Below are positions 1-38,497 of a stretch of DNA of 64,000 bases, in pieces. The number at the start of each line of letters is the position of its first letter. Within the stretch, counting starts at the first letter, position 1. Source of the DNA: Fragilaria crotonensis (taxonomy: Eukaryota > Bacillariophyta > Fragilariophyceae > Fragilariales > Fragilariaceae); contig JAKSYS010000007.1 in NCBI GenBank assembly GCA_022925895.1, forward strand, positions 62,001-126,000, written 5' to 3'. The position numbers and the translations under genes were made by a program. The notes under the pieces are model-generated. The model was not told the DNA's origin. It was given only the letters and a program-made list of their open reading frames with translations, and made no database searches.

Positions 1-1164
1 AGTCTCCAGCATGCCTCCTGGTGTTGGCTGTAAAAATAGATGTGTTGAAATCATTTAGTAATTAAGATTGATTTTGGCCTTGACTCAAAACTCAATGAAA
101 TAATGTCACCTTTGCAATCAAAATAGAGTCAGACAATGCGTCCTTCGTTGAGTCAAACCTTGTGAAGCAAGTGACAGATTGTACCGGATGCTACACAGTA
201 CGAAGTACACAACATATGCAGTCTACACAAATTCAATCAGTTGTTGATTCAATCACACTTGTTGGCATCGGCCACTTTGATTGAGAATAAAAACAAAGGT
301 GCAACTGCCTTGCATGCAGTTCATGAAACAGAAGGATTGTAACAGGGGTATGGAGGTGTCAGGGGTTTTAAACAGGCTCTTTTAAACCTTGAAAGTTTTT
401 CGAAGTAGACAATTTGTATTATTGAATTCAAGATTAGGGTTAAGGTTTACTGGCTATGGAATTGAAGGCGGATGCACATAACTCTTCGGCGTTTTTTGTC
501 ATGTGCCAGTATTTCCACAACACCATTCTGCCATCATGGGACAGGGAATCGCGAATCGCGAGGTCGTTCAATTCTCACGACCAAGAAGTCCATGTCTCAA
601 ATGTCGTCGGCTTATATGAATGTGCGACGCACGTATTACGAGTACTCCGTGGAGACATCTAAAAACTCAAATGTGGTTGGGGAGGATGTCGCAGGTACTG
701 AATTTTGCGTATAAGAATTGCGATCCCAGGTGAACAAGTTGTCCATGTGTTCGGCGATGGGGTCTCTTAGCTTGACATTGGCGTTCTCATGATCCCGATA
801 TGCGACATGCGTACGTACGGGCTAAGCAGTCATACTTTTTTTGAAGTCATCGTTCATGCGAAAGGAGGATAAATGTTGCCTTTCCGAGCTGTTGTAAAGG
901 AACTGAAACGCTGCTCCTCGTACTCGTATGAATGAACAAGGATGGTCGATCCTTAGAAAACATCTGCGGAAAAATCGGACACACTCGGCGTCACCTTCGT
1001 GATTGATGACGTCGTGGAGAGAGCAAGTGTCTAGGCTAAGGCAAACACGTATGCACTCTTATGTACAATAAGTCGTATCTATTAGAATCAGATTGGGCAT
1101 CCTTTACATGTGAACTCGGAGTAATAGATGTTTCATGACCCTCATTATCTGACCAAGAAGAACG
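1..1164. other. Intergenic sequence, no gene seen
   Basis: No convincing coding region. Two short open frames overlap near 456-714 but have no recognisable domain and no codon-quality signal, so they are left out. The stretch is moderately AT-rich and has no clear long repeat. It ends at the palindrome cluster that starts the recombinase element. Confidence 0.5.
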
Positions 1165-1339
1165 GGTATCCTAGGTGATAACAACTGCCCACCACGGTCA
1201 TTCTAGGTGATTTATCACCTAGAATACCGGGATGATCGATCAGAAAATTCTTCCGTGCGTAGGACATTGAGTACAAATGTACCAGGCTTGTTTTCTTCCA
1301 GGGAAGAAAAGGGTATTCTAGGTGTCATTTACCTAGAAT
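1165..1339. repeat. Left palindrome cluster of recombinase element (candidate recombination sites)
   Basis: Three related sites lie within 175 bp. Site L2 is ATTCTAGGT (1200-1208), 8-bp spacer GATTTATC (1209-1216), ACCTAGAAT (1217-1225). Site L3 is ATTCTAGGT (1315-1323), 7-bp spacer, ACCTAGAAT (1331-1339). A half site, GGTATCCTAGGTGATAA (1165-1181), is an inverted copy of 1213-1229 with one mismatch. L2 with its flanks (ACCACGGT before, ACCGG after, 1191-1230) matches the right-hand site at 5114-5152 in the same orientation. The arm-spacer-arm layout resembles the core sites of tyrosine recombinases such as Cre and Flp. That function is inferred from position and shape. Confidence 0.7.
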
Positions 1340-1464
1340 TGATACAACACTTTTTTTCATACATTATTCCAGTCTCGCAGACATCGATTTTTAACGTGTC
1401 TGCGTAACTTCCTATTGAATCACGAATACCATGACGCAGAGGATCAGCATTCTCGATTACTCCT

Positions 1465-1471
1465 TATAAAG
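1465..1471 (+). promoter_or_regulatory. TATA-like box of recombinase gene
   Basis: TATAAAG lies 39 bp upstream of the ATG at 1510. This is a plausible core promoter, but it rests on a short motif and position only. Confidence 0.35.
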
Positions 1472-1509
1472 CAGAATAAGAAAAGCACATCAAGCCCTTC
1501 TTTGCAATA

Positions 1510-4239
1510 ATGGAGACATCCACTCTTTTGGCTGCCTCACCGTGTGCACTAGGTAACAGGTGCCGCATGCAGAGAGATCAAAATGGGATGTTGCCTCTTG
1601 TCACAACAAATCAGGCGTGTGTTTGTTGCAAGAAGGTATTACATCCGATCTGCGGTCATGTTCATGAGCAGACAAGTTTTCTCACCTGTTCGTTGTGCTA
1701 CGAACAATTTGGCAGGACATTTGAGAGTCCTGCATTGGCAGCAGCATTTATTGAGGAGATTCAAGCAACAACTGAACTACTATTGGCCGGCAAAACAGGA
1801 AACTACGGAACAGCAGATTATACTCCTCCTAGCAATGCAGCCGATGACGAGATGTATACCGGTGCAGATGAAGTAGTTAATCAAGTGTTGACGACCAATC
1901 ACAGCTTAGCACGAGCACGGATGGTTCAAGATGTTTACGAAGCCATGACTCCAGCAAAGTGTCGGAAGGAGAATCGTTCCTTGTCAACAAGGGCAAAGAA
2001 TCAGAGCGAGGCATGTCGGTTAGTTGTTTGGTTGTTTGGTGTCAAGAATAATGAAAGTGCAGATACAAAAGTTAGGTTGAAGGCTTTGATTGACAAGTGT
2101 TTGCTCATGGCTATCGAAATAGAAATCAAGAAAATTGTCGGCCTGCCAACAGAGAGCAGGACGACTACAGCTATTCGTGTGGCTACGAAGGCTTGGCTAG
2201 AAGACGAACAAAATCCAGCTCCATTTACATTTGCTGGTTTCTTGTATGATGACTATTCAAACTATCTCCGAGTTCAACTCAAGAAAGATGGTGTCCCTTT
2301 GAAAGGAAAATGTTACAAAAACAAGCGATCAAGTCTCAATAACCTTTTCAAAAGGTACAAGTATCAAGCATCTCCCGAGTTTGAGGAAAAAGTAAATGAT
2401 TACATGGATGGCGTTGTTCGCATTGTAGCTGCTGCGGCCCAAAGTGGAATTGGTTCAATTGTCGTGTCTGGAAAAAGAGAATTGTCGTTTGAGGTGTATG
2501 AGAAGTTGATGGTCTGGTTTTTGCAGGAACGATCGCACGAAGGAATATTCTCACGAGCATTTCTATCCCTTACGTGGAACTTGATGTGTCGTGGTGTTAA
2601 CACGTGTGTTTGTCTGAAGCATTTATTATGGAAAAATGATTGCTTTGGTTTGTCGTTCTCACATGTGAAGAATGACCAAGACGGTTCCAGGAACTACCAC
2701 CCGAGGCACATCTATGCTAACCCAGACAGCTACCTTCTGTGCTGTGTAACAGCAATCTTTGAGTACCTACTATGTTATCCCGGGTTATTTAAAGATGAGC
2801 ACAGCATGCTGTTTCCAGGACCAAGTCAGGAAGAGCGATTCAGCGACAACCTCACAAGAGTGCTAGAAAAACACAAGGACGAGCTCCTTGACTTGGGATA
2901 TGTACCAGGTGACCTCGGTGTCCACTCAATAAGAAAAGGTGCTGGGACATATGCATCGAGTGGCACTACAGCTGCTCCTAGCTCTGTTGCTGTGAACAAT
3001 CGTGGTGGTTGGACACTTGGTGGTGCTCGCGATGTGTACATGCTGTACGAACGTGCCGGTGATCAGTATGTTGGTCGTATTTTAAGTGGCATGAATGTAT
3101 TGTCACCAAAGTTTGGTGCAAGTTGCCCTGACTTTATTTATCATCGAGATCTCTTGGAAGGGTTGTCTGCTGACGAAGAGGCTTCAGAGACTGAACGACA
3201 ACAAGATTTGCTAGAGAGGCAGGTTTCGGAATCATTGATGTCATGTTTTGGGGACTTAGAGAAATTTATCTCAATAAGGCGAACTCTTCGATTTGGACTT
3301 GCATCGGTGTTGCATCACTTTGATGAAGGAAAGCGTTATCACGGTGCAGATAATGCTGATCCAACAAATGCAACCAGTGCACACCCTTTGTCACCTGTCT
3401 GTCTTTCTCCGGTGTATCGAAGCAGGAAGATTGGTGCACTGAAGGCTCGTGTGAGAGTTGTTTATCCATGGGAGACCGATGACGTGTCAAAAAAGTGTGT
3501 GATGAGATTGACGGGTATTCCACCTCACGTGGTACACCTTGCACAGATGAGACAACTTCAAGAGTCGATGGCAACTATGCCTCCAATGATATTAGAAGGA
3601 GTTGAGAAGATGCTTGATGATAGGACTGTCAGTGGGACAATGTCAGAGACACGAATGCGGGCACTTATGCATTCAGTGGTCGATGAAGGTCAAAAGCAAC
3701 TCATGGAAGAGTTTCGACGAACTGGAGGAGCGAGCACGCATGGACCTGTAAACAACACAGACATGGCATCAATTGATGATGAAGCATTTTTTAGGCATCG
3801 AGTTTGGATGCACACGGGCAAATTCCGTCGTGTCCCTCCACTGTGGACATTCCCGAGGTGTAATGTCCATGCTGCATACAAAATTTGGCACACCCAAAAT
3901 ACTGTGACAGAGCAATGTGCGATGTTTTTTCTGAGACCTGTAGATGTCGACTTTCGAACGGATGGTCGCAGGCGATTGGAAGAATTCAGATTTTTGATGT
4001 GGCGGTTTGACGTTGTTGCCAGCGAGCTAGGTTTGTTGCGACAAAGGATGTCAGAGTTGGATTGCAGCACTGCAATCAACGCGTCAATAGAGAAGCTCGG
4101 AGTGCCATTGGAGACCCCAGCAGGTCGATGTCGGCATCTTGAGAAGTTGAAATGGCCAATATTCCTGCAGCTAATGCCTGATAAGCAGCGACCAACGAAG
4201 GAGGCTTTTAAAGCAACGTATCAGAGACTGCGGCCATGA
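1510..4239 (+). CDS. Crypton-like tyrosine recombinase (transposase)
   Basis: An intronless 909-residue protein. The N-terminus has a Cys/His cluster that could bind zinc (C37, C40, C48, H50, C60, C63). The middle is a tyrosine-recombinase catalytic domain: R361 in MCRGVN, K387 in HVKND, H472-x-x-R475 in HSIRKG, W501, and Y510 nine residues after W501. This spacing and order (R, K, HxxR, H/W, Y) is what the family needs for strand cleavage through a 3'-phosphotyrosine, so the enzyme looks catalytically whole. The C-terminal part around residues 760-800 (RVPPLWTFPRCNV) resembles the GCR1-like DNA-binding region of Cryptons; that match is weaker. The reading frame is unbroken, unlike most elements in this window. 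Flanking palindromes at 1191-1230 and 5114-5152 are the likely substrate sites. A domesticated recombinase gene is the main alternative. Confidence 0.85.
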   Translation: METSTLLAASPCALGNRCRMQRDQNGMLPLVTTNQACVCCKKVLHPICGHVHEQTSFLTCSLCYEQFGRTFESPALAAAFIEEIQATTELLLAGKTGNYGTADYTPPSNAADDEMYTGADEVVNQVLTTNHSLARARMVQDVYEAMTPAKCRKENRSLSTRAKNQSEACRLVVWLFGVKNNESADTKVRLKALIDKCLLMAIEIEIKKIVGLPTESRTTTAIRVATKAWLEDEQNPAPFTFAGFLYDDYSNYLRVQLKKDGVPLKGKCYKNKRSSLNNLFKRYKYQASPEFEEKVNDYMDGVVRIVAAAAQSGIGSIVVSGKRELSFEVYEKLMVWFLQERSHEGIFSRAFLSLTWNLMCRGVNTCVCLKHLLWKNDCFGLSFSHVKNDQDGSRNYHPRHIYANPDSYLLCCVTAIFEYLLCYPGLFKDEHSMLFPGPSQEERFSDNLTRVLEKHKDELLDLGYVPGDLGVHSIRKGAGTYASSGTTAAPSSVAVNNRGGWTLGGARDVYMLYERAGDQYVGRILSGMNVLSPKFGASCPDFIYHRDLLEGLSADEEASETERQQDLLERQVSESLMSCFGDLEKFISIRRTLRFGLASVLHHFDEGKRYHGADNADPTNATSAHPLSPVCLSPVYRSRKIGALKARVRVVYPWETDDVSKKCVMRLTGIPPHVVHLAQMRQLQESMATMPPMILEGVEKMLDDRTVSGTMSETRMRALMHSVVDEGQKQLMEEFRRTGGASTHGPVNNTDMASIDDEAFFRHRVWMHTGKFRRVPPLWTFPRCNVHAAYKIWHTQNTVTEQCAMFFLRPVDVDFRTDGRRRLEEFRFLMWRFDVVASELGLLRQRMSELDCSTAINASIEKLGVPLETPAGRCRHLEKLKWPIFLQLMPDKQRPTKEAFKATYQRLRP

Positions 4240-5113
4240 CACTTGCATACTACTGTAGTTGTAGTAGTAGCTACCCTGAGTACGTTGCCATAATTCAAAG
4301 TAGGAGTCATAATCAATACTATGATATCTGACCTCATTCAATTACTAGTCTGCACTGGTCAAGTAATACTCTAAAATCTTTCATGCCATTACAGCCGCCG
4401 CACCGCAATACCCAGGTTTCAACAAAAAATTCAGTTGATGTGTCGACAGCTTGCTGTTTGCAAAAAGGAATACATTCCAGGAGCCATAGACTATGCAGTT
4501 CTGCTTGCATCATGAGGGTACAAACCTCGGGTGTTTCTGCTTGTTCCAATAACCGCTCGCAAAATTAGTAGCTCAAAATAACCGAGTGGATGGATGACAT
4601 GCTGATTGTTTACTGTAGCCCATGCTGACAGTGTTTACTGTAGCCCATGCTGACCGAGGTGACATGAATGTCCATCAGTACTACCAGTATCAACAAGAAA
4701 AGAGGATTCTGTTAACTGTTCCTCCTGACCGCACACTGTTGTTCCACCTATTACCGATACACTTGTAGTGAGCGAACACGAACAAATCTTGATACATGGT
4801 GTCACATGCTACGTACCGTCCTATACGTAAATTGTACGGGGACGCAACCCACATTCACCTTGCCGACCATCGGATGCCAAGGCAAGCGTTTCCCATTTGA
4901 ATGCAAGAAACGATTAATGGAATGCCACTTATCTCGAGGACAACATAACAAAACTGTGTGAGTCCTGATTTTTATCCGAGTCCAGGCGCAATAAACTGAG
5001 AATGCGATGTGCGTTACGTTTGTTCGTAGTCTGGAGTCTGGAGTGCCAGGTACACGCAGGACGCAGTGTGCCATCGACCCATCCGTGACTTGATGGCTGT
5101 ACGTAGTATTTGT
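4240..5113. other. 3' noncoding part of recombinase element
   Basis: No coding region is supported on either strand. The segment includes a short tandem duplication at 4607-4654. The last 30 bp share an ATCCGTGAC block and a TTTGTACCA block with the 55.8 kb remnant, so it belongs to the element rather than to the host. Confidence 0.5.
4607..4654. repeat. Two-copy tandem repeat, 23-bp unit
   Basis: The 23-bp unit beginning TGTTTACTGTAGCCC occurs at 4607-4629 and again at 4632-4654 without change. It lies in the noncoding tail of the recombinase element. No function is evident. Confidence 0.8.
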
Positions 5114-5152
5114 ACCACGGTTTTCTAGGTTGTGAATCACCTAGAAAACCGG
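5114..5152. repeat. Right palindromic site of recombinase element
   Basis: GGTTTTCTAGGT (5119-5130), spacer TGTGAATC (5131-5138), ACCTAGAAAACC (5139-5150): perfect 12-bp inverted arms around 8 bp, the arm and spacer geometry of loxP or FRT. It shares ACCACGGT to the left and ACCGG to the right with the left site at 1191-1230. It could also fold as a hairpin terminator, but the paired occurrence around a recombinase gene favours a recombination site. Confidence 0.7.
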
Positions 5153-5444
5153 TTGTGAAACAGAAGAATTAAAGCCCAACACGATATACTCCGTAATCTA
5201 AAAACCAATACTTGAGTATACAACTGGAACAGAGGCCGCCTTCATCCCTCCGGCGTCAGGACCACTCAACTTAGTCATACCAGGTTCTACATCCACCAGG
5301 ATACCACCATCAGACTTATCGAATTGTAACGCCTTGGGGCTACATATTACAATTTGTCACAATAACCGACATTTGAATCTGCAAAGCCCCTCTGGCCGCC
5401 TCTTCTGCCTTTGCCATCATCAACAACAACAAGTCTTTCCCAGA

Positions 5445-8400
5445 ATGGAAGAAAGACAAGAGCTCGATGCCATGATGTTGGGCGACAGTTATACGAATCA
5501 ATATGGTAATGATCCAAGCATTACCAAAACAACAACATCGTCAAGGGTGAAGAAGGACAAATCTGAGATGACTTTAGATGAAAAGCAGAAGAAGAAAGAG
5601 AAAAAGAAGAAGAAGAAAAACAAGAAAAGCAGCAAGTCGGAATCCAAACAAACATCGTCCACGGGATCCCATTCCTTACAAGACAGCAGCGTTACGAAAA
5701 CAACGGCAGGGAGCACGGTGTTTGTCAATTCGTCGCCAGGGGAAAGTACAGACATTGACCACACCATCTGGCCTTTGGATCAGGAACACCAGTGGGATGC
5801 GACCACCAAGTGTTCCGATGTTGCCTCAATTGGGGGATTCAGTCACAACGAGGCATTGTGGGCAGGATTGAGAGCTGATCAGACTGTTGTTTCTGCGACA
5901 GGGGAATCCGTCGATCCTAGAAAGGTATTTACTAAAATCGATCGTCAGGAACGAAGTAAGCGCCGACCATCCGCCAAACACGAATCCGTCGGATCGCAAT
6001 CTGATGGTAGCCAGCAACAGCTCCTCATGTCACGACCTCCAGTCATTATTAAATCGCAACCCAAGAATCAGCGCAGGGAAAATCGACATGACGCAAGACG
6101 TCGCGCATACCGGTCCTCGGGAATTACGGAGACCATTACATCCAATGTGGGTGAGGTAGAGAACGAACCCGACCCGTTGGTCCAATACCTTGTCTCAATG
6201 GGATTCGATCATGGGGATGCGGAACTAGTTAGTGACAAGTTCGTTCTTCAACGGGATTCTCGGACATCAGTTCAAACGGACACATCCTCCCAACCGAGTG
6301 ACGAAAGTTCTTCCAGCGCGGCGTCGCGGAAGTTTCGGAACCTACATTCGTCGTTGCCAGCACCAGAATATCGTACAACGCAGTCAAGAAGGTCCTTACA
6401 GCACTCGCTGCATTCGGAGGATGGGGACATTGAGAATTGCAACCTTGGTGAACCTATGCAACGCGAACCTGAGAGTGGAGTATGGCAGCACGACTTGGAT
6501 GTGATACCTTCGGCGACCCCGGAGGCCATCCCAGTCATGGAAGACTCCTCGAACAAGTGGCCAATCATTTACGCCGACTCCGGGCCACTATCTTTGATGC
6601 ACGCGATGAAGGATAGAAATCTTCGGCGCTTTATCTTGCTCGGAATTCTAATTTTGGTTGCGGCTGTCACGACTACCACAGTCGTGCTGTTGCGCAGAAA
6701 CAGTGGGGGCGTTGCTGCGTCAACAGAGGCACTTGGACCCACCATTTCCCCATCATCATCACCGACCTTTATCAATGACGATATTCTCAATGAAGCAGCG
6801 AAAATATCTGGATGGGACGCCCTCAATCAAGCGGATTCCCCTCAGATGAAGGCAGTGGGGTGGATGTCTAGTCTTGATGAGACTGACTTGGACGAGTTTG
6901 GCACCGCATTCGTACAGAGATACTGTCTTGTGGTGTTCTATTTCAGCACCGGTGGGCCTAATTGGTTGAATCAGCACTCGTGGCTCGACCCCAAACTACA
7001 CGCGTGCAGCTGGGGTGAAGGCACATCGTGTTTCCCTGATGGCTCGAACCAGCTGATTTTCATTGGCTTGGATGAAACTCGCAATGGCCTATCAGGCTCA
7101 CTGCCGGTTGAGCTTGGATTTCTTTCAGAAACTGTTTTCCTTCGGCTTTCAAAGAACGACATTGGTGGTTCTATTCCTAGTGAGATTGGAAAGCTGAAAC
7201 GTTTATCAACTCTTGATCTGTCCTCGAACATGATAACTGGTTCGATCCCCGACACGATCGGAGATGCTGCAGATCTTGTCCAGCTTGATCTATCATACAA
7301 CCGAATAAATGGAACTATTCCATCGTCATTTTACAATCTTGTACGGCTTCATTTGCTCCGTTTGTCTTTCAATGAGATCACCGGCCCAATTGAGGCGGAT
7401 GTCGGGAATCTCAAGGACATTGCAACTTTCGATGTCCGAAACAACAAATTGTCTGGAACAGTCACCACAGGCTTTGATCAGCTGAAGGCCGCTGACGTTA
7501 TCTGGATGGACTACAACAAATTCTCAGGACCAATTCCTCCGTTGTCGGAAGTGATGGGTACGTGTGCTATGAAAAGCTCTCGTGTTTTGTTATTTCAGCG
7601 CTCGCCTTTCCTGTCCACTAATGTCATTACAATTTTGAGCAGCCAGTCGACTTGAGATGACTTTCAGTCACAATGACTTGACAGGAACAATTCCCGTCGC
7701 AGATGTGTTGCGTCGCCACTTGCAAGATGTTGAAGAGTCTTATCGTTTTCGCATTCAAAAGATTGACTTGTCGTACAACCGATTGTCTGGAACAATCAAT
7801 CCCGTAAGCGGGTATCTTCCGACTTTGCGATATGCAGATTTCTCCGGTAACAACTTCACGGGACAGGTAAGACTCCCTTGCTTTCGCTGTGCACTATTGT
7901 GAATTCCTCATGGCTGACTGCAAAACTCTTCCGATTTCAGTTCCCGGGCGATAATGGCTGGTCTGGAATTGAGTTTCTTGGCATTGCAAATAACAACTTC
8001 ACTGGGACGCTCCCTTCCGGGTGGCCGCGATCTTTAAGTCATCTGGATGTTGCCAACAACTCCTTGACAGGAGGCATTCCCACAGAATTGTGCAATTTTC
8101 CAGGCCTCAAGCTGCTAGGGCTTGGTGGCAATTCAAATTTGACCGCCACTCTACCTACGTGTCTCTTCGAGCTTCCCTTGCTGCAAAACTTAAATCTGGC
8201 CAGCATCAACCTAGAGGGAACTATTCCCACTCAGATTGGCATGCTTACACTGCTTGAGTACCTGGATGTATCAGGGAACTCATTGACAGGGACAATCCCA
8301 AGCGAGACGGGGCTTTGCTCGAATTTGGCAGCGATTGACTTGTCCAGCAACCAGCTTGGGGGTGGGATTCCCAGTGATTTGGGTCAGCTCCATTTCCTCA

Positions 8401-8615
8401 AGTCGTTTAATGTCGGAGAAAATGATTTGGTTGGGTCGTTGCCGCAAGAGTTTGGGGAATTGCAGGGCATCGAGCACATATCATTGCGTGGTAACGATCT
8501 CACCGGGAGTATTCCGGAAGGACTTTGTTTGACTGAGACGAATTGGTCAAGTGTTGACATTGGTTGCGGAATAGAATGTAGATGTTGTGTGACTACTGGG
8601 AAGGACTCGTGTTGA
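5445..8615 (+). CDS. Leucine-rich-repeat membrane protein (receptor-like)
   Basis: Three exons are inferred: 5445-7557, 7643-7866 and 7941-8615, with introns of 85 and 74 nt (GTACGT...GCAG and GTAAGA...TCAG); phases agree and give 1003 residues. The first ATG in frame is 5445; the frame is open upstream but has no earlier ATG. The N-terminal 390 residues are polar, with a Lys-rich tract near residues 45-65, and are probably cytoplasmic. One hydrophobic segment spans about residues 396-416. After a short linker come plant-type repeats (LxxLxLxxNxLxGxIP) from about residue 540 to the C-terminus. There is no kinase domain and no signal peptide. Diatoms carry many such proteins; ligand and function are unknown. 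The gene is convergent with the next one, 136 bp away. Confidence 0.85.
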
Positions 8616-33177: not shown

Positions 33178-36100
33178 TCATGTGAGAATCTGGAAGTCTT
33201 TGAGTTTTGATCTTCTCAAGGCTATTCGGTCAAACCAGCGCAGGTCCCTTCCACCGATCTCACGCTCGACATAGTCCAACCAATACTCTTCCAAAACTAA
33301 CATTTGGTTCACGGACGGATATTGTGTCACCCCTAACCGTCGCATGGCCTGAGTTTCGCTCAGATTCCAATCAGACGTTTCGAACAGGACTGGTGCGGGT
33401 TGAAGGTGACGATAAAGGTCCGCTGGTAACTCCGTGATAGGTACAGTCCCCAAACCAATAGCCTCATACGTTCGGAAGCAATCGGGTCGGTCCCCATCAG
33501 GAGAAAGTATGAATCGGTGTCTTGCAATTTCGTCATAATACTCGGTATAGTTCAATTGTGGGCCCGACGGAATGTTCTGCCGTTTAACATTGGTCATACT
33601 GAGATATCCGTACATGATGCCCCCTGTTTTGCTATGGTTGGTGTCACTCTGGAGCCTCAAGATAGCCTTACTCAAGAATCCAAGTGGCCAATGGTGAGGA
33701 AGAATGCCGTAGGGCCAAGGCGCAAGTTTTGGATGGAGCGGCTGGCGAAAGTGATAACCAAGATTTTGAGAGAAAAGTCTGACAATGAATGAGGAATTCA
33801 ACAAGGTCGCTTCGGTTTCCTCCGGAATCAATTGTACAACATGGCGATGTTGGCCCACAATCAAGATGATTGGCAAGGTGATGTTTGGCAGAATTGTTTC
33901 AACAAAGTCTGTGAGCCCTCTCGTATTCACATAGATTGTATCGTAAGGTTCAATCTGCGATGACGTTTCCATATTTAAGTGTTGACTCGCATGATAGCCA
34001 CCAATACCTAAATCGTTCCCCGGAGCTAGAAAACAGTCAACAACTGATGCATCCGATCCACCGCCATGAAAAACCCACGCAGTAAGGTGGCAACCTGATG
34101 CAGCCGTTATGAGATTGACACCCCGTTCGGAAATTGTTCGTCCCAATGACTCAGAAAAGCGACCGAGACTGACCGCTGCTCCTGCAACAGGTTCCTGGTC
34201 AGACTTGGCTTCTCCAGTCGCAGGTTTATGCTCAGTCGTGGTATCGCTTATAACTGTTGAATTATTTCCGAACTTGCGATCCGAGATCTCTCTGGACACA
34301 AAGACTTCGCTCTGCGTACAGTGCGTGCACTCTCCAAGTAGGGAAAATGGGGTCACGTAACCGTGACCAAACAAGAGTTGTCGAACCGCCTCATCCTTCT
34401 GTGGATTGTTGCCGTCCATCTCAATCACGAAGATGTCGACGGGAACACTCCAGTCGAACGTCTCAAGAACAGTGAGTTCCCCTTCCTCAACATCCAAGAA
34501 GAAAAGATCCACGTAATCAATCCCATTCTTCTCGAACAATTCCGGCAGCAGCATGCACGGAACCTCCACCAACGCAAGGGACTCGTCGATAAATCGTTTT
34601 TTATGAGCAGCACTCATATCCTTTGCAGCACCACCAACTGCACCATGGTGAGCGGGTTGAAAGGAGATGGATTTCCCACGACAAACGGCTCCGAAGACGT
34701 TGGTTGCGTTGGGTCGGTTGACAACCATCTTCGCATAGTTGTCAGCAGATGCTTCGATCAGAAGGGCTTTCCAATGAAGGGCGTATTCAAAGAACCAAGA
34801 GTTACTGAAGGTTATTCCGTCCAAGCCTCCAATCTCAACCACAACTCCACGGCACTTGGGGTCTTCAGCGTAGAATTTGTGGAAGATTCTAGTATCCTCC
34901 GAGTACTGAGAGTAGAAAGGACGCTTAGGTTTGCAGTGCAGTTCGTCGTAACTGTAATTAGATCAATATCAACTTCCTGGTCGGACTTGGCTTCTCCTGC
35001 AACAGGTTCCTGGTCAGACTTGGCTTCTCCAGTCGCAGGTTTATGCTCAGTCGTGGTATCGCTTATAACTGTTGAATTATTCCCGAACTTGCGATCCGAG
35101 ATCTCTCTGGACACAAAGACTTCGCTCTGCGTACAGTGCGTGCACTCTCCAAGTAGGGAAAATGGGGTCACGTAACCGTGACCAAACAAGAGTTGTCGAA
35201 CCGCCTCATCCTTCTGTGGATTGTTGCCGTCCATCTCAATCACAAAGATGTCGACGGGAACACTCCAGTCGAACGTCTCAAGAACAGTGAGTTCCCCTCC
35301 CTCAACATCCAAGAAGAAAAGATCCACGTAATCAATCCCATTCTTCTCGAACAATTCCGGCAGCAGCATGCACGGAACCTCCACCAACGCAAGGGACTCG
35401 TCGATAAATCGTTTTTTATGAGCAGCACTCATATCCTTTGCAGCACCACCAACTGCACCATGGTGAGCGGGTTGAAAGGAGATGGATTTCCCACGACAAA
35501 CGGCTCCGAAGACGTTGGTTGCGTTGGGTCGGTTGACAACCATCTTCGCATAGTTGTCAGCAGATGCTTCGATCAGAAGGGCTTTCCAATGAAGGGCGTA
35601 TTCAAAGAACCAAGAGTTACTGAAGGTTATTCCGTCCAAGCCTCCAATCTCAACCACAACTCCACGGCACTTGGGGTCTTCAGCGTAGAATTTGTGGAAG
35701 ATTCTAGTATCCTCCGAGTACTGAGAGTAGAAAGGGACGCTTAGGTTTGCAGTGCAGTTCGTCGTAACTGTAATTAGATCAATATCAACTTCCTGGTCGG
35801 ACTTGGCTTCTCCTGCAACAGGTTCCTGGTCAGACTTGGCTTCTCCAGTCGCAGGTTTATGCTCAGTCGTGGTATCGCTTATAACTGTTGAATTATTCCC
35901 GAACTTGCGATCCGAGATCTCTCTGGACACAAAGACTTCGCTCTGCGTACAGTGCGTGCACTCTCCAAGTAGGGAAAATGGGGTCACGTAACCGTGACCA
36001 AACAAGAGTTGTCGAACCGCCTCATCCTTCTGTGGATTGTTGCCGTCCATCTCAATCACGAAGATGTCGACGGGAACACTCCAGTCGAACGTCTCAAGAA

Positions 36101-38497
36101 CAGTGAGTTCCCCTTCCTCAACATCCAAGAAGAAAAGATCCACGTAATCAATCCCATTCTTCTCGAACAATTCCGGCAGCAGCATGCACGGAACCTCCAC
36201 CAACGCAAGGGACTCGTCGATAAATCGTTTTTTATGAGCAGCACTCATATCCTTTGCAGCACCACCAACTGCACCATGGTGAGCGGGTTGAAAGGAGATG
36301 GATTTCCCACGACAAACGGCTCCGAAGACGTTGGTTGCGTTGGGTCGGTTGACAACCATCTTCGCATAGTTGTCAGCAGATGCTTCGATCAGAAGGGCTT
36401 TCCAATGAAGGGCGTATTCAAAGAACCAAGAGTTACTGAAGGTTATTCCGTCCAAGCCTCCAATCTCAACCACAACTCCACCGCACTTGGGGTCTTCAGC
36501 GTAGAATTTGTGGAAGATTCTAGTATCCTCCGAGTACTGAGAGTAGAAAGGGACGCTTAGGTTTGCAGTGCAGTTCGTCGTAACTGTAATTAGATCAATA
36601 TCAACTTCCTGGTCGGACTTGGCTTCTCCTGCAACAGGTTCCTGGTCAGACTTGGCTTCTCCAGTCGCAGGTTTATGCTCAGTCGTGGTATCGCTTATAA
36701 CTGTTGAATTATTCCGAACTTGCGATCCGAGATCTCTGGACACAAAGACTTCGCTCTGCGTACAGTGCGTGCACTCTCCAAGTAGGGAAAATGGGGTCAC
36801 GTAACCGTGACCAAACAAGAGTTGTCGAACCGCCTCATCCTTCTGTGGATTGTTGCCGTCCATCTCAATCACAAAGATGTCGACGGAACACTCCAGTCGA
36901 ACGTCTCAAGAACAGTGAGTTCCCTCCTCAACATCCAAGAAGAAAAGATCCACGTAATCAATCCCATTCTTCTCGAACAATTCCGGCAGCAGCATGCACG
37001 GAACCTCCACCAACGCAAGGGACTCGTCGATAAATCGTTTTTTATGAGCAGCACTCATATCCTTTGCAGCACCACCAACTGCACCATGGTGAGCGGGTTG
37101 AAAGGAGATGGATTTCCCACGACAAACGGCTCCGAAGACGTTGGTTGCGTTGGGTCGGTTGACAACCATCTTCGCATAGTTGTCAGCAGATGCTTCGATC
37201 AGAAGGGCTTTCCAATGAAGGGCGTATTCAAAGAACCAAGAGTTACTGAAGGTTATTCCGTCCAAGCCTCCAATCTCAACCACAACTCCACCGCACTTGG
37301 GGTCCTCAGCGTAGAATTTGTGGAAGATTCTAGTATCCTCCGAGTACTGAGAGTAGAAAGGGACGCTTAGGTTGGCAGTGCAGTTCGTCGTAACTGTAAT
37401 TAGATCAATATCAACCTCCAGAACGGTCTTGGCTTCTCCTGCCACAGCTTCCAGAACGGTCTTGGCTTCTCCTGCAACAGGTTCCTGGTCAGACTTGGCT
37501 TCTCCAGTCGCAGGTTTATGCTCAGTCGTGGTATCGCTTATAACTGTTGAATTATTTCCGAACTTGCGATCCGAGATCTCTCTGGACACAAAGACTTCGC
37601 TCTGCGTACAGTGCGTGCACTCTCCAAGTAGGGAAAATGGGGTCACGTAACCGTGACCAAACAAGAGTTGTCGAACCGCCTCATCCTTCTGTGGATTGTT
37701 GCCGTCCATCTCAATCACAAAGATGTCGACGGGAACACTCCAGTCGAACGCCTCAAGAACAGTGAGTTCCCTCCTCAACATCCAAGAAAAAGATCCACGT
37801 AATCAATCCCATTCTTCTCGAACAATTCCGGCAGCAGCATACACGGAACCTCCACCAACGCAAGGGACTCGTCGATAAATCGTTTTTTATGAGCAGCACT
37901 CATATCCTTTGCAGCACCACCAACTGCACCATGGTGAGCGGGTTGAAAGGAGATGGATTTCCCACGACAAACGGCTCCGAAGACGTTGGTTGCGTTGGGT
38001 CGGTTGACAACCATCTTCGCATAGTTGTCAGCAGATGCTTCGATCAGAAGGGCTTTCCAATGAAGGGCGTATTCAAAGAACCAAGAGTTACTGAAGGTTA
38101 TTCCGTCCAAGCCTCCAATCTCAACCACAACTCCACCGCACTTGGGGTCTTCAGCGTAGAATTTGTGGAAGATTCTAGTATCCTCCGAGTACTGAGAGTA
38201 GAAAGGGACGCTTAGGTTTGCAGTGCAGTTCGTCGTAACTGTAATTAGATCAATATCAACTTCCAGAACGGTCTTGGCTTCTCCTGCGACAACATTATGA
38301 CCGGTTATGTTATGATTGGGTGTCTTCGATGCTTTTGAGACAAATGATGAAGCACTCGTCATGGCAGATTTCAAGCTGTGCCAATTCTCGAAATGAAATC
38401 CAAGGGGTAATAGAAGAACAATTACCGTCAAAGTAAGTTTCATGCAAGGACGACTTGAAAGGGGGGCCGTAAAGACTTTTGGAGTATACTTCCTCAT
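33178..38497 (-). CDS. Five-unit FkbM methyltransferase array fused to RXYLT1-like glycosyltransferase
   Basis: Read on the minus strand from ATG 38497. A signal-anchor (residues about 20-34, LTLTVIVLLLPLGFHF) suggests a Golgi type II membrane protein. Five tandem units of about 272 residues follow, each an FkbM-type (Methyltransf_21) domain with VVEIGGLDGITFSNS (SAM-binding loop), YVDLFFLDVEEGELTVLETF and IFVIEMDGNN. A C-terminal region (about 33178-34170) includes RHRFILSPDGDRPDCFRTYE and GTVPITE, as in exostosin/RXYLT1-like glycosyltransferases. If one frame, the product would be about 1770 residues. The frame changes at about 37775, 36872-36906, 36714-36740 and 34918, mostly where one copy differs from the others in a short G or C run. 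In near-identical repeats, consensus error is a real possibility; a decaying gene or several separate genes are the alternatives. Role in glycan modification is inferred. Confidence 0.75.
34190..38250 (-). repeat. Tandem array of five units of about 816 bp
   Basis: A marker sequence (GATCAATATC) recurs at 34961, 35777, 36593, 37403 and 38248, giving spacings of 816, 816, 810 and 845 bp. Units are nearly identical over their length, so the array is young or homogenised by gene conversion. The extra length of the 845-bp interval is one additional 30-bp linker repeat. Confidence 0.95.
37412..37517 (-). repeat. 30-bp linker minisatellite encoding VAGEAK repeats
   Basis: Between FkbM units, 30-bp repeats encode ten-residue linkers such as PATGEAKSDQE, VAGEAKSDQE and VAGEAKTVLE. 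Their number differs between junctions: one at the first unit, about four here, two or three elsewhere. They are hydrophilic and probably flexible spacers. Confidence 0.8.

What the first reader, a model, noticed from the sequence alone, without database searches (positions are those of the whole stretch)
1191..5152. Tyrosine-recombinase element bounded by loxP/FRT-shaped sites
The gene at 1510-4239 keeps the full R-K-HxxR-W-Y set. On either side lies a site of the form arm-8 bp-arm: ATTCTAGGT/ACCTAGAAT around GATTTATC on the left, GGTTTTCTAGGT/ACCTAGAAAACC around TGTGAATC on the right. Both sites share ACCACGGT and ACCGG flanks in the same orientation. Cryptons are usually described with only short direct repeats at the ends, so palindromic core sites of Cre/Flp geometry would be an informative and possibly new arrangement. 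The two spacers differ, which is unlike homologous-spacer recombinases and raises the question of how the ends are joined.
Basis: partly seen in the sequence, partly recalled or inferred. Interest (0 to 1): 0.75.

Follow-up and report, generated by a model that had tools for sequence, protein, structure and literature searches.

The report
Diatom Crypton with compound attachment sites
A jumping gene in a freshwater diatom carries an intact tyrosine recombinase and, just inside each end, palindromic sites that change together with the recombinase in its relatives; related copies show insertion at short AGAAG-like sequences outside those palindromes, giving a testable picture of how this little-studied class of transposon moves.

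Summary
The palindromes are real and far beyond chance, but they are not the ends. The window holds a 4.0-kb Crypton-type tyrosine-recombinase (YR) transposon at 1156-5168, bounded by 7-bp direct repeats AGAAGAA. Inside lie a half-site (1169-1176), two palindromes on the left (1200-1225 and the missed 1315-1339) and one on the right (5118-5151). Ten 2.5-kb copies too short for the YR gene keep these ends. Paralogous empty sites for five of them place the exchange at AG(AAGAA), outside the palindromes. Two tandem pairs show the predicted circle junction. In diverged relatives of the same genome the arms change together (CTAGGT, GTAGGT, TTAGGT) with the YR subfamily, while spacing to the crossover stays at 13 nt left and 15 nt right. 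A distant YR family, also found as tandem dimers, has palindromes near its ends too. Best reading: the palindromes are arm-type recombinase-binding sites of a compound attachment site, as in phage attP; the element circularises and integrates at minimal AGAAG-type targets. The kind is known (Crypton); I met no description of this end anatomy for Cryptons in the papers searched. No circle, binding or activity data exist.

The parts
1156..5168 (+). Whole element, 4013 bp including both terminal direct repeats
   Evidence: Ends by comparison with other copies (12 left ends, 10 right ends) and with paralogous empty sites of 5 of them
1156..1162 (+). Left terminal direct repeat AGAAGAA (crossover sequence, attL side)
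   Evidence: 13 of 13 left-end rows read AGAAGAAC; empty sites
5162..5168 (+). Right terminal direct repeat AGAAGAA (attR side)
   Evidence: AGAAGAA in 8 of 11 right-end rows; exceptions C284b AGAAGAT, C189 AGAGAAGAA, C370 AG only
1169..1176 (+). L1, single half-site TCCTAGGT, 13 nt from the start of the terminal repeat
   Evidence: Half-site at 13 nt in 11 of 11 elements compared
1200..1225 (.). L2 palindrome ATTCTAGGT-GATTTATC-ACCTAGAAT
1315..1339 (.).
5118..5151 (.). R1 palindrome CGGTTTTCTAGGT-TGTGAATC-ACCTAGAAAACCG; its ACCTAGAA arm ends 15 nt before the right terminal repeat
1510..4239 (+). Tyrosine recombinase gene, 909 aa; YR fold matched over residues of about 150-650, long conserved C-terminal part, cysteine-rich N terminus
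   Evidence: ORF; alignment; model; Flp/Ndc10/Cre matches
1156..1428 (+). Left end kept (81-83% identity) in the ten 2.5-kb copies: presumed minimal left attachment region
5078..5170 (+). Right end kept (84-86% identity) in the ten 2.5-kb copies: presumed minimal right attachment region

Best explanation
A Crypton-type DNA transposon in a diatom (Fragilaria crotonensis, inferred). Its 909-aa tyrosine recombinase excises the element as a circle by recombining the two AGAAGAA repeats. The circle junction (R1 - 15 bp - AGAAGAA - 6 bp - L1 - L2 - L3) is a compound attachment site: recombinase protomers or dimers bind the palindromic and half-site arms on both sides of a short crossover. The circle integrates into chromosomal targets that supply only the crossover sequence (AG at least, AGAAGAA usually), leaving one copy at each end. 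Shown by sequence: ends, direct repeats, empty sites of related copies, tandem circle-type junctions, arms covarying between subfamilies, constant spacings, short copies keeping only the ends, YR catalytic residues and predicted fold. Inferred: that the arms are bound by the element's own YR, that a free circle is the intermediate, and the exact cleavage positions.
Against: No circle reads or binding data. Core half-sites directly flanking AGAAGAA were not identified. C370 (only CAG shared), the 9-bp TTTCTGCTG on both outer flanks of the C284 pair, and C189 (2 bp more than a conservative exchange with a 7-bp junction would leave) do not fit a strict 7-bp overlap. The 2.5-kb copies' ends are only 81-86% identical to the window's, so another master may move them. 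Empty sites are paralogous repeats, not alleles, and none was found for the window element or for 6 of the 11 insertions queried. L2 is degenerate in C54 and C73 and mismatched in C753. Related rows are not independent: C30 and C34 YRs are 99% alike.
Confidence: 0.8

Rival explanations
1. The palindromes are loxP/FRT-like crossover sites: the recombinase joins L2 (or L3) to R1, and the element ends there.
For: Arm-spacer-arm geometry of YR sites; predicted fold closest to Flp, Ndc10 and Cre.
Against: Empty sites and tandem junctions put the ends at AGAAG, outside the palindromes. The three sites of one element have three different spacers, while L3 keeps gtcatt- between the window, C753 and C54.
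Confidence: 0.04
2. The palindromes are operators of a transcriptional regulator (the YR or a host factor) controlling the YR gene, not recombination sites.
For: L2 and L3 lie upstream of the YR start; distant families also have palindromes upstream of the YR frame.
Against: R1 lies 879 bp behind the gene at the far end; the copies too short for the YR gene keep the sites at constant distance from the crossover. Dual use is not excluded.
Confidence: 0.08
3. Single-stranded hairpins, as in integron attC sites (recalled): the palindromes act folded on one strand of a single-stranded intermediate.
For: Long arms (up to 13 bp) with short loops.
Against: The L1 half-site, which has no inverted partner, is conserved at constant spacing; both ends of the insertions fit reciprocal exchange of double strands.
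Confidence: 0.04
4. The elements move by a transposase supplied in trans; the YR only resolves intermediates (as Kojima and Jurka suggest for ciliate Tec elements).
For: Repeats at the ends could be target duplications; the C189 copy shows 9 bp on both sides.
Against: Repeat length varies (3, 7, 9) with the target's own match to AGAAGAA, and the sequence pre-exists in target and element; other frames of 80 aa or more inside the element are only 97-129 aa (not searched against families).
Confidence: 0.04

Closest known systems
Crypton transposons, group CryptonS (Kojima & Jurka 2011, PMC3212892; abstract and passages read)
   Same: Stramenopile host, YR as the enzyme, short terminal direct repeats thought to be the recombination substrate, circle model, conserved C-terminal region; a distant relative here (P0022, 28% identity) has a C48 peptidase domain, as some CryptonS elements do (1 of 7 proteins scanned). 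Non-autonomous derivatives are reported there for other Crypton groups.
   Different: Repeat is AGAAGAA/AGAA(G), not TATGG; subterminal palindromes plus a half-site at constant distances. The held text has no word beginning 'palindrom', and it says that no conserved nucleotide sequences were found among Cryptons of different species.
Phaeovirus (Ectocarpus EVE) tyrosine-recombinase attachment sites (PMC13236599; passages and part 1 of section 6 read)
   Same: Stramenopile host, YR, minimal crossover (CC); viral ends carry a conserved inverted repeat on the left and imperfect direct repeats on the right.
   Different: Giant virus of 288-407 kb; AT-rich inverted repeats also flank the CC core there; here several palindromes with the same arms, covarying between subfamilies, in a 4-kb transposon.
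Phage lambda-type attP and Tn916/Tn1549-type conjugative transposon ends (recalled; only the integrase structures were met)
   Same: Arm-type sites on both sides of a short crossover; minimal target.
   Different: Arms here are palindromic (dimer-like); no DNA-bending site or excisionase was identified.
Fungal Starships (PMC12134995, passages read)
   Same: YR-driven, direct repeats, sometimes inverted repeats at the ends.
   Different: Giant cargo elements with DUF3435 captains; the Pfam scan of the window YR listed no such match.

Membership tests
Crypton (superfamily) | Encodes a tyrosine recombinase with R-H-R-Y | tested here: met
   R361, K387, H472, R475, W501, Y510 in the window YR and 4 of 4 relatives compared; fold match to Flp/Cre
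Crypton (superfamily) | No reverse transcriptase or DDE transposase in the element | tested here: met
   Besides the YR only frames of 97-129 aa at the 80-aa limit in 1156-5168; Pfam lists only a sub-threshold zinc finger for the YR protein
Crypton (superfamily) | Short terminal direct repeats shared with the target | tested here: met
   AGAAGAA at both ends of the window element; present beforehand in paralogous empty sites of related copies C172 and C872, variants for C189, C562, C370
Crypton (superfamily) | Excision as a circle and integration of the circle | not testable with these tools
   Only indirect: tandem pairs with circle-type junctions
CryptonS | TATGG termini (majority of members) | tested here: not met
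   Termini AGAAGAA; the paper says 'majority', so it is not strict. Not filed as CryptonS.
CryptonS | Groups with reference CryptonS YRs in a tree | not tested
   Repbase sequences not held; P0022 with a C48 peptidase domain only hints at it
DIRS/Ngaro retrotransposons | Reverse transcriptase next to the YR | tested here: not met
   No second large frame in the element
Starship | DUF3435 captain | tested here: not met
   No DUF3435 match listed in Pfam at E<=10 (filters drop most weak matches)
loxP/FRT-type simple site recombination | Crossover inside the palindrome's spacer, equal spacers | tested here: not met
   Spacers differ; exchange of related copies lies outside the palindromes

The most novel reading that the evidence does not exclude
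Diatom, perhaps most stramenopile, Cryptons carry a phage-like compound attachment site: several palindromic recombinase-binding arms on both sides of a 2-7-bp crossover, with arm sequence co-evolving with the recombinase, so that a bare AGAAG-type sequence is enough as target and each subfamily moves its own short copies. Two YR families of this genome, only 26-30% identical in their matched parts, show palindromes around their junctions.
Probability: 0.5. Interest if true: 0.75.

Novelty: new variant of a known kind. Interest (0 to 1): 0.6.

Why it matters
Kojima and Jurka (2011) wrote that there had been no studies of Crypton transposition and that boundaries are difficult to characterise (passages). 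Here one genome gives defined ends, empty sites, circle-type junctions, candidate binding sites and three recombinase/site variants that differ mainly at one arm letter (C, G, T). That makes recognition, excision and integration directly testable, and suggests distinct eukaryotic recombinase/site pairs with a very permissive target.

Tried and rejected
Palindromes as element ends: rejected by empty sites. The apparent 92-95% identity between fully held 2.5-kb copies was an alignment artefact of unfetched (N) stretches in other rows; direct pairwise alignment of the 5 fully held copies gives 0-11 mismatches in about 2.48 kb, with 22-37 gap columns. A target-duplication reading for C284 (TTTCTGCTG) and C872 (AAATG) was considered; C872's empty site already has AGAAGAA, and no constant duplication fits all copies. 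Core half-sites: none convincing around AGAAGAA by eye. The viral contig scan with the YR alignment gave no relative (18 pattern stretches, none confirmed). The profile search of solved structures gave 6 hits at E 0.31-0.97, none a YR. Other diatom genomes could not be searched (no relatives held for G000). Empty sites for C284, C105, C30, C34, C153 and C753 were not seen, but only 40 of 260 candidates were scored: inconclusive. For the window element no empty or allelic copy appeared (40 of 47 candidates scored; only 432 bp of right flank in the query). Literature: searches were listings from an open-access library (one search listed 12 of 17, 15 of 28); passages were opened in PMC3212892, PMC13236599, PMC12134995 and PMC4157794 (nothing on Crypton end sites in the 12 of 20 places shown). 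Goodwin et al. 2003 was not read.
Full report

The palindromes. TTCTAGGTN{7,8}ACCTAGAA occurs at 1201, 1316 and 5123 in the window and 0 times in 100 shuffles. The element holds 3 inverted repeats with arms of 9 or more and spacer 6-10; 200 shuffles of it give a mean of 0.08 and at most 1; the 58.8 kb downstream hold 3. In the genome the 8-bp-spacer form occurs at 33 places, reversed-pattern control 0. 28 lie in ten 2.5-kb copies, 2 in the window element, 1 in a decayed YR copy (C764), 1 in a left-end fragment (C89), all placed by DNA match; the last, on C321, has by eye AGAA 13 nt before a half-site and the next arm 32 nt on, like a diverged left end.

The ends. 13 of 13 left-end rows begin AGAAGAAC, and 8 of 11 right-end rows read GTGAAACAGAAGAA; exceptions are C284b (AGAAGAT), C189 (AGAGAAGAA) and C370 (AG). 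Two copies in tandem on C284 are joined by GAAACAGAAGAACGGG, what circle formation or circle insertion predicts. Of 11 joined flanks searched in the genome, 5 (C172, C562, C872, C189, C370) have uninterrupted paralogues, 21 places among the 40 scored of 260 candidates; I fetched 10. They show AGAAGAA already in the target (C172, C872), AGAGAAGAA for C189 (whose 9 bp stand on both sides), AGAGGAA in the paralogue of C562, and only CAG for C370. So exchange falls at AG(AAGAA). By the same end sequences the window element is 1156-5168: its left end lies 44 bp outside L2, its right end 17 bp outside R1.

Relatives and covariation. YR relatives in the same genome (C753 68%, C30 55%, C34 59%, C153 57% identity over matched parts; 85% and 69-73% over residues 240-535) have the same layout with different arms: GTAGGT/ACCTAC in C753, TTAGGT/ACCTAA in C30, C34, C153, C712. 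For 11 elements one search listed 33 arm pairs; 3 were dropped (one at the half-site of C764, two outside the elements C30 and C313). Of the 30 left, at L2, L3 or R1 places, the variable letter is complementary in 29 (exception C753 L2). L2 of C54 and C73 is too degenerate to be listed; right ends of C764 and C712 were not found. The half-site stands 13 nt from the repeat in 11 of 11; R1 stands 15 nt from it in 8 of 9 right ends, the ninth (C284a) being cut one base short of the pattern and reading 15 by eye. The right-end pattern also matched at L2 of C712 and C313, set aside. Some rows are close kin (C30 and C34 YRs 99% alike). Genome counts for arm letters C, G, T, A are 33, 18, 15, 0, controls 0; the C search used spacer 8 only, the others 6-10. 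Stretches with the G and T forms include short elements where one search lists no YR match (50 of 65 candidates scored), among them a roughly 1-kb tandem pair on C54.

Short copies. The five fully held 2.5-kb copies differ by 0-11 mismatches in about 2.48 kb, with 22-37 gap columns; pairs with the five partly held copies differ by 0-14 in about 1,900 aligned bases. The longest open frame of C284a is 102 aa. They keep only about 273 bp of the left and 93 bp of the right end of the window element, the stretches that hold L1-L3 and R1. So the palindromes belong to the DNA needed in cis.

How it most likely works. Excision by recombination of the two repeats gives a circle whose junction carries R1 on one side and L1-L2-L3 on the other: a compound attachment site bound by the YR. 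Integration is at chromosomal AGAAGAA-like sequences with as little as AG shared. Spacers differ between the palindromes of one element, so loxP-like exchange between them is not expected. Binding by the YR, the free circle and the cleavage points are inference.

Generality. Other YR loci of the genome (26-30% identity) have palindromes with AAAGT-type arms upstream of the frame, about 120-490 bp before the first Met (about 850 for L016): L016, L020, L021, L022, L023 and, imperfectly, L024, 6 of 8 examined; L017 and L019 showed other inverted repeats only. On C327 and C262 one such family sits as a tandem dimer of about 3.38-kb units; the junction reads CGCTTATACATAACTG, with palindromic sites (by eye) on both sides. 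This suggests that the arrangement and tandem dimers are common in diatom Cryptons; only this genome was examined.

Against known kinds. Kojima and Jurka 2011 (PMC3212892; abstract and passages) describe CryptonS of oomycetes and a diatom with 5-6-bp repeats, mostly TATGG, and say that no conserved nucleotide sequence was found between Cryptons of different species. Phaeovirus insertions (PMC13236599; passages and part 1 of section 6) use a CC crossover with inverted and direct repeats in the viral ends, the nearest published analogue I met. Listings for Crypton with stramenopile, diatom, palindrome, subterminal, attP and terminal repeats showed no title or abstract on such sites in a Crypton; only four papers were opened, in passages, and the library is open-access only.

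Noticed in passing
L071 (C327:187300-195500) and C262:1-8800 (L072, L023, L073): A distant YR family occurs as tandem dimers of about 3.38-kb units, 99.4-99.6% alike, with palindromic arms around the junction. YR hits 3-5 kb apart on one strand on C471, C443, C219 and C569 suggest more such arrays.
   Followed up: partly
C284:141039-146363 (L034, L035, L047): The outer flanks of the tandem pair both carry TTTCTGCTG next to the terminal repeats; unexplained (natural repeat in the target or a second kind of duplication).
   Followed up: partly
C803:21806 and C290:1: Contigs break at or within two bases of an element end, as expected if these are tandem arrays or collapsed repeats in the assembly.
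   Followed up: no
window 1291-1310 minus offset: C869:63291-63310 = window 1291-1310: A further palindrome TTTTCTTCCAGGGAAGAAAA just before L3; C753 has TAATTCTTCCTGGGAAGAATTA at the same place. It contains inverted GAAGAA motifs like the terminal repeat; role unknown.
   Followed up: no
L063 (C53:76650-79350): Two G-arm left ends 2.2 kb apart in the same orientation rather than a left and a right end: an array or rearranged copies.
   Followed up: no
window 33178-37781, minus strand: Several frames made of near-identical repeats of one unit (by eye an FkbM-type methyltransferase-like protein), a local tandem expansion.
   Followed up: no
window 365-448: Dispersed short repeat with 12 other places listed in the genome at 76-80% identity.
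   Followed up: no
window 5445-8615: Frames of a protein that by eye has leucine-rich repeats and a transmembrane stretch, directly downstream of the element.
   Followed up: no
window 1510-4239, YR residues 34-65: Cysteine-rich N terminus with a sub-threshold zinc-finger match (Znf_SCAND3, E 0.0079, 16.6 bits against a cut-off of 27).
   Followed up: no
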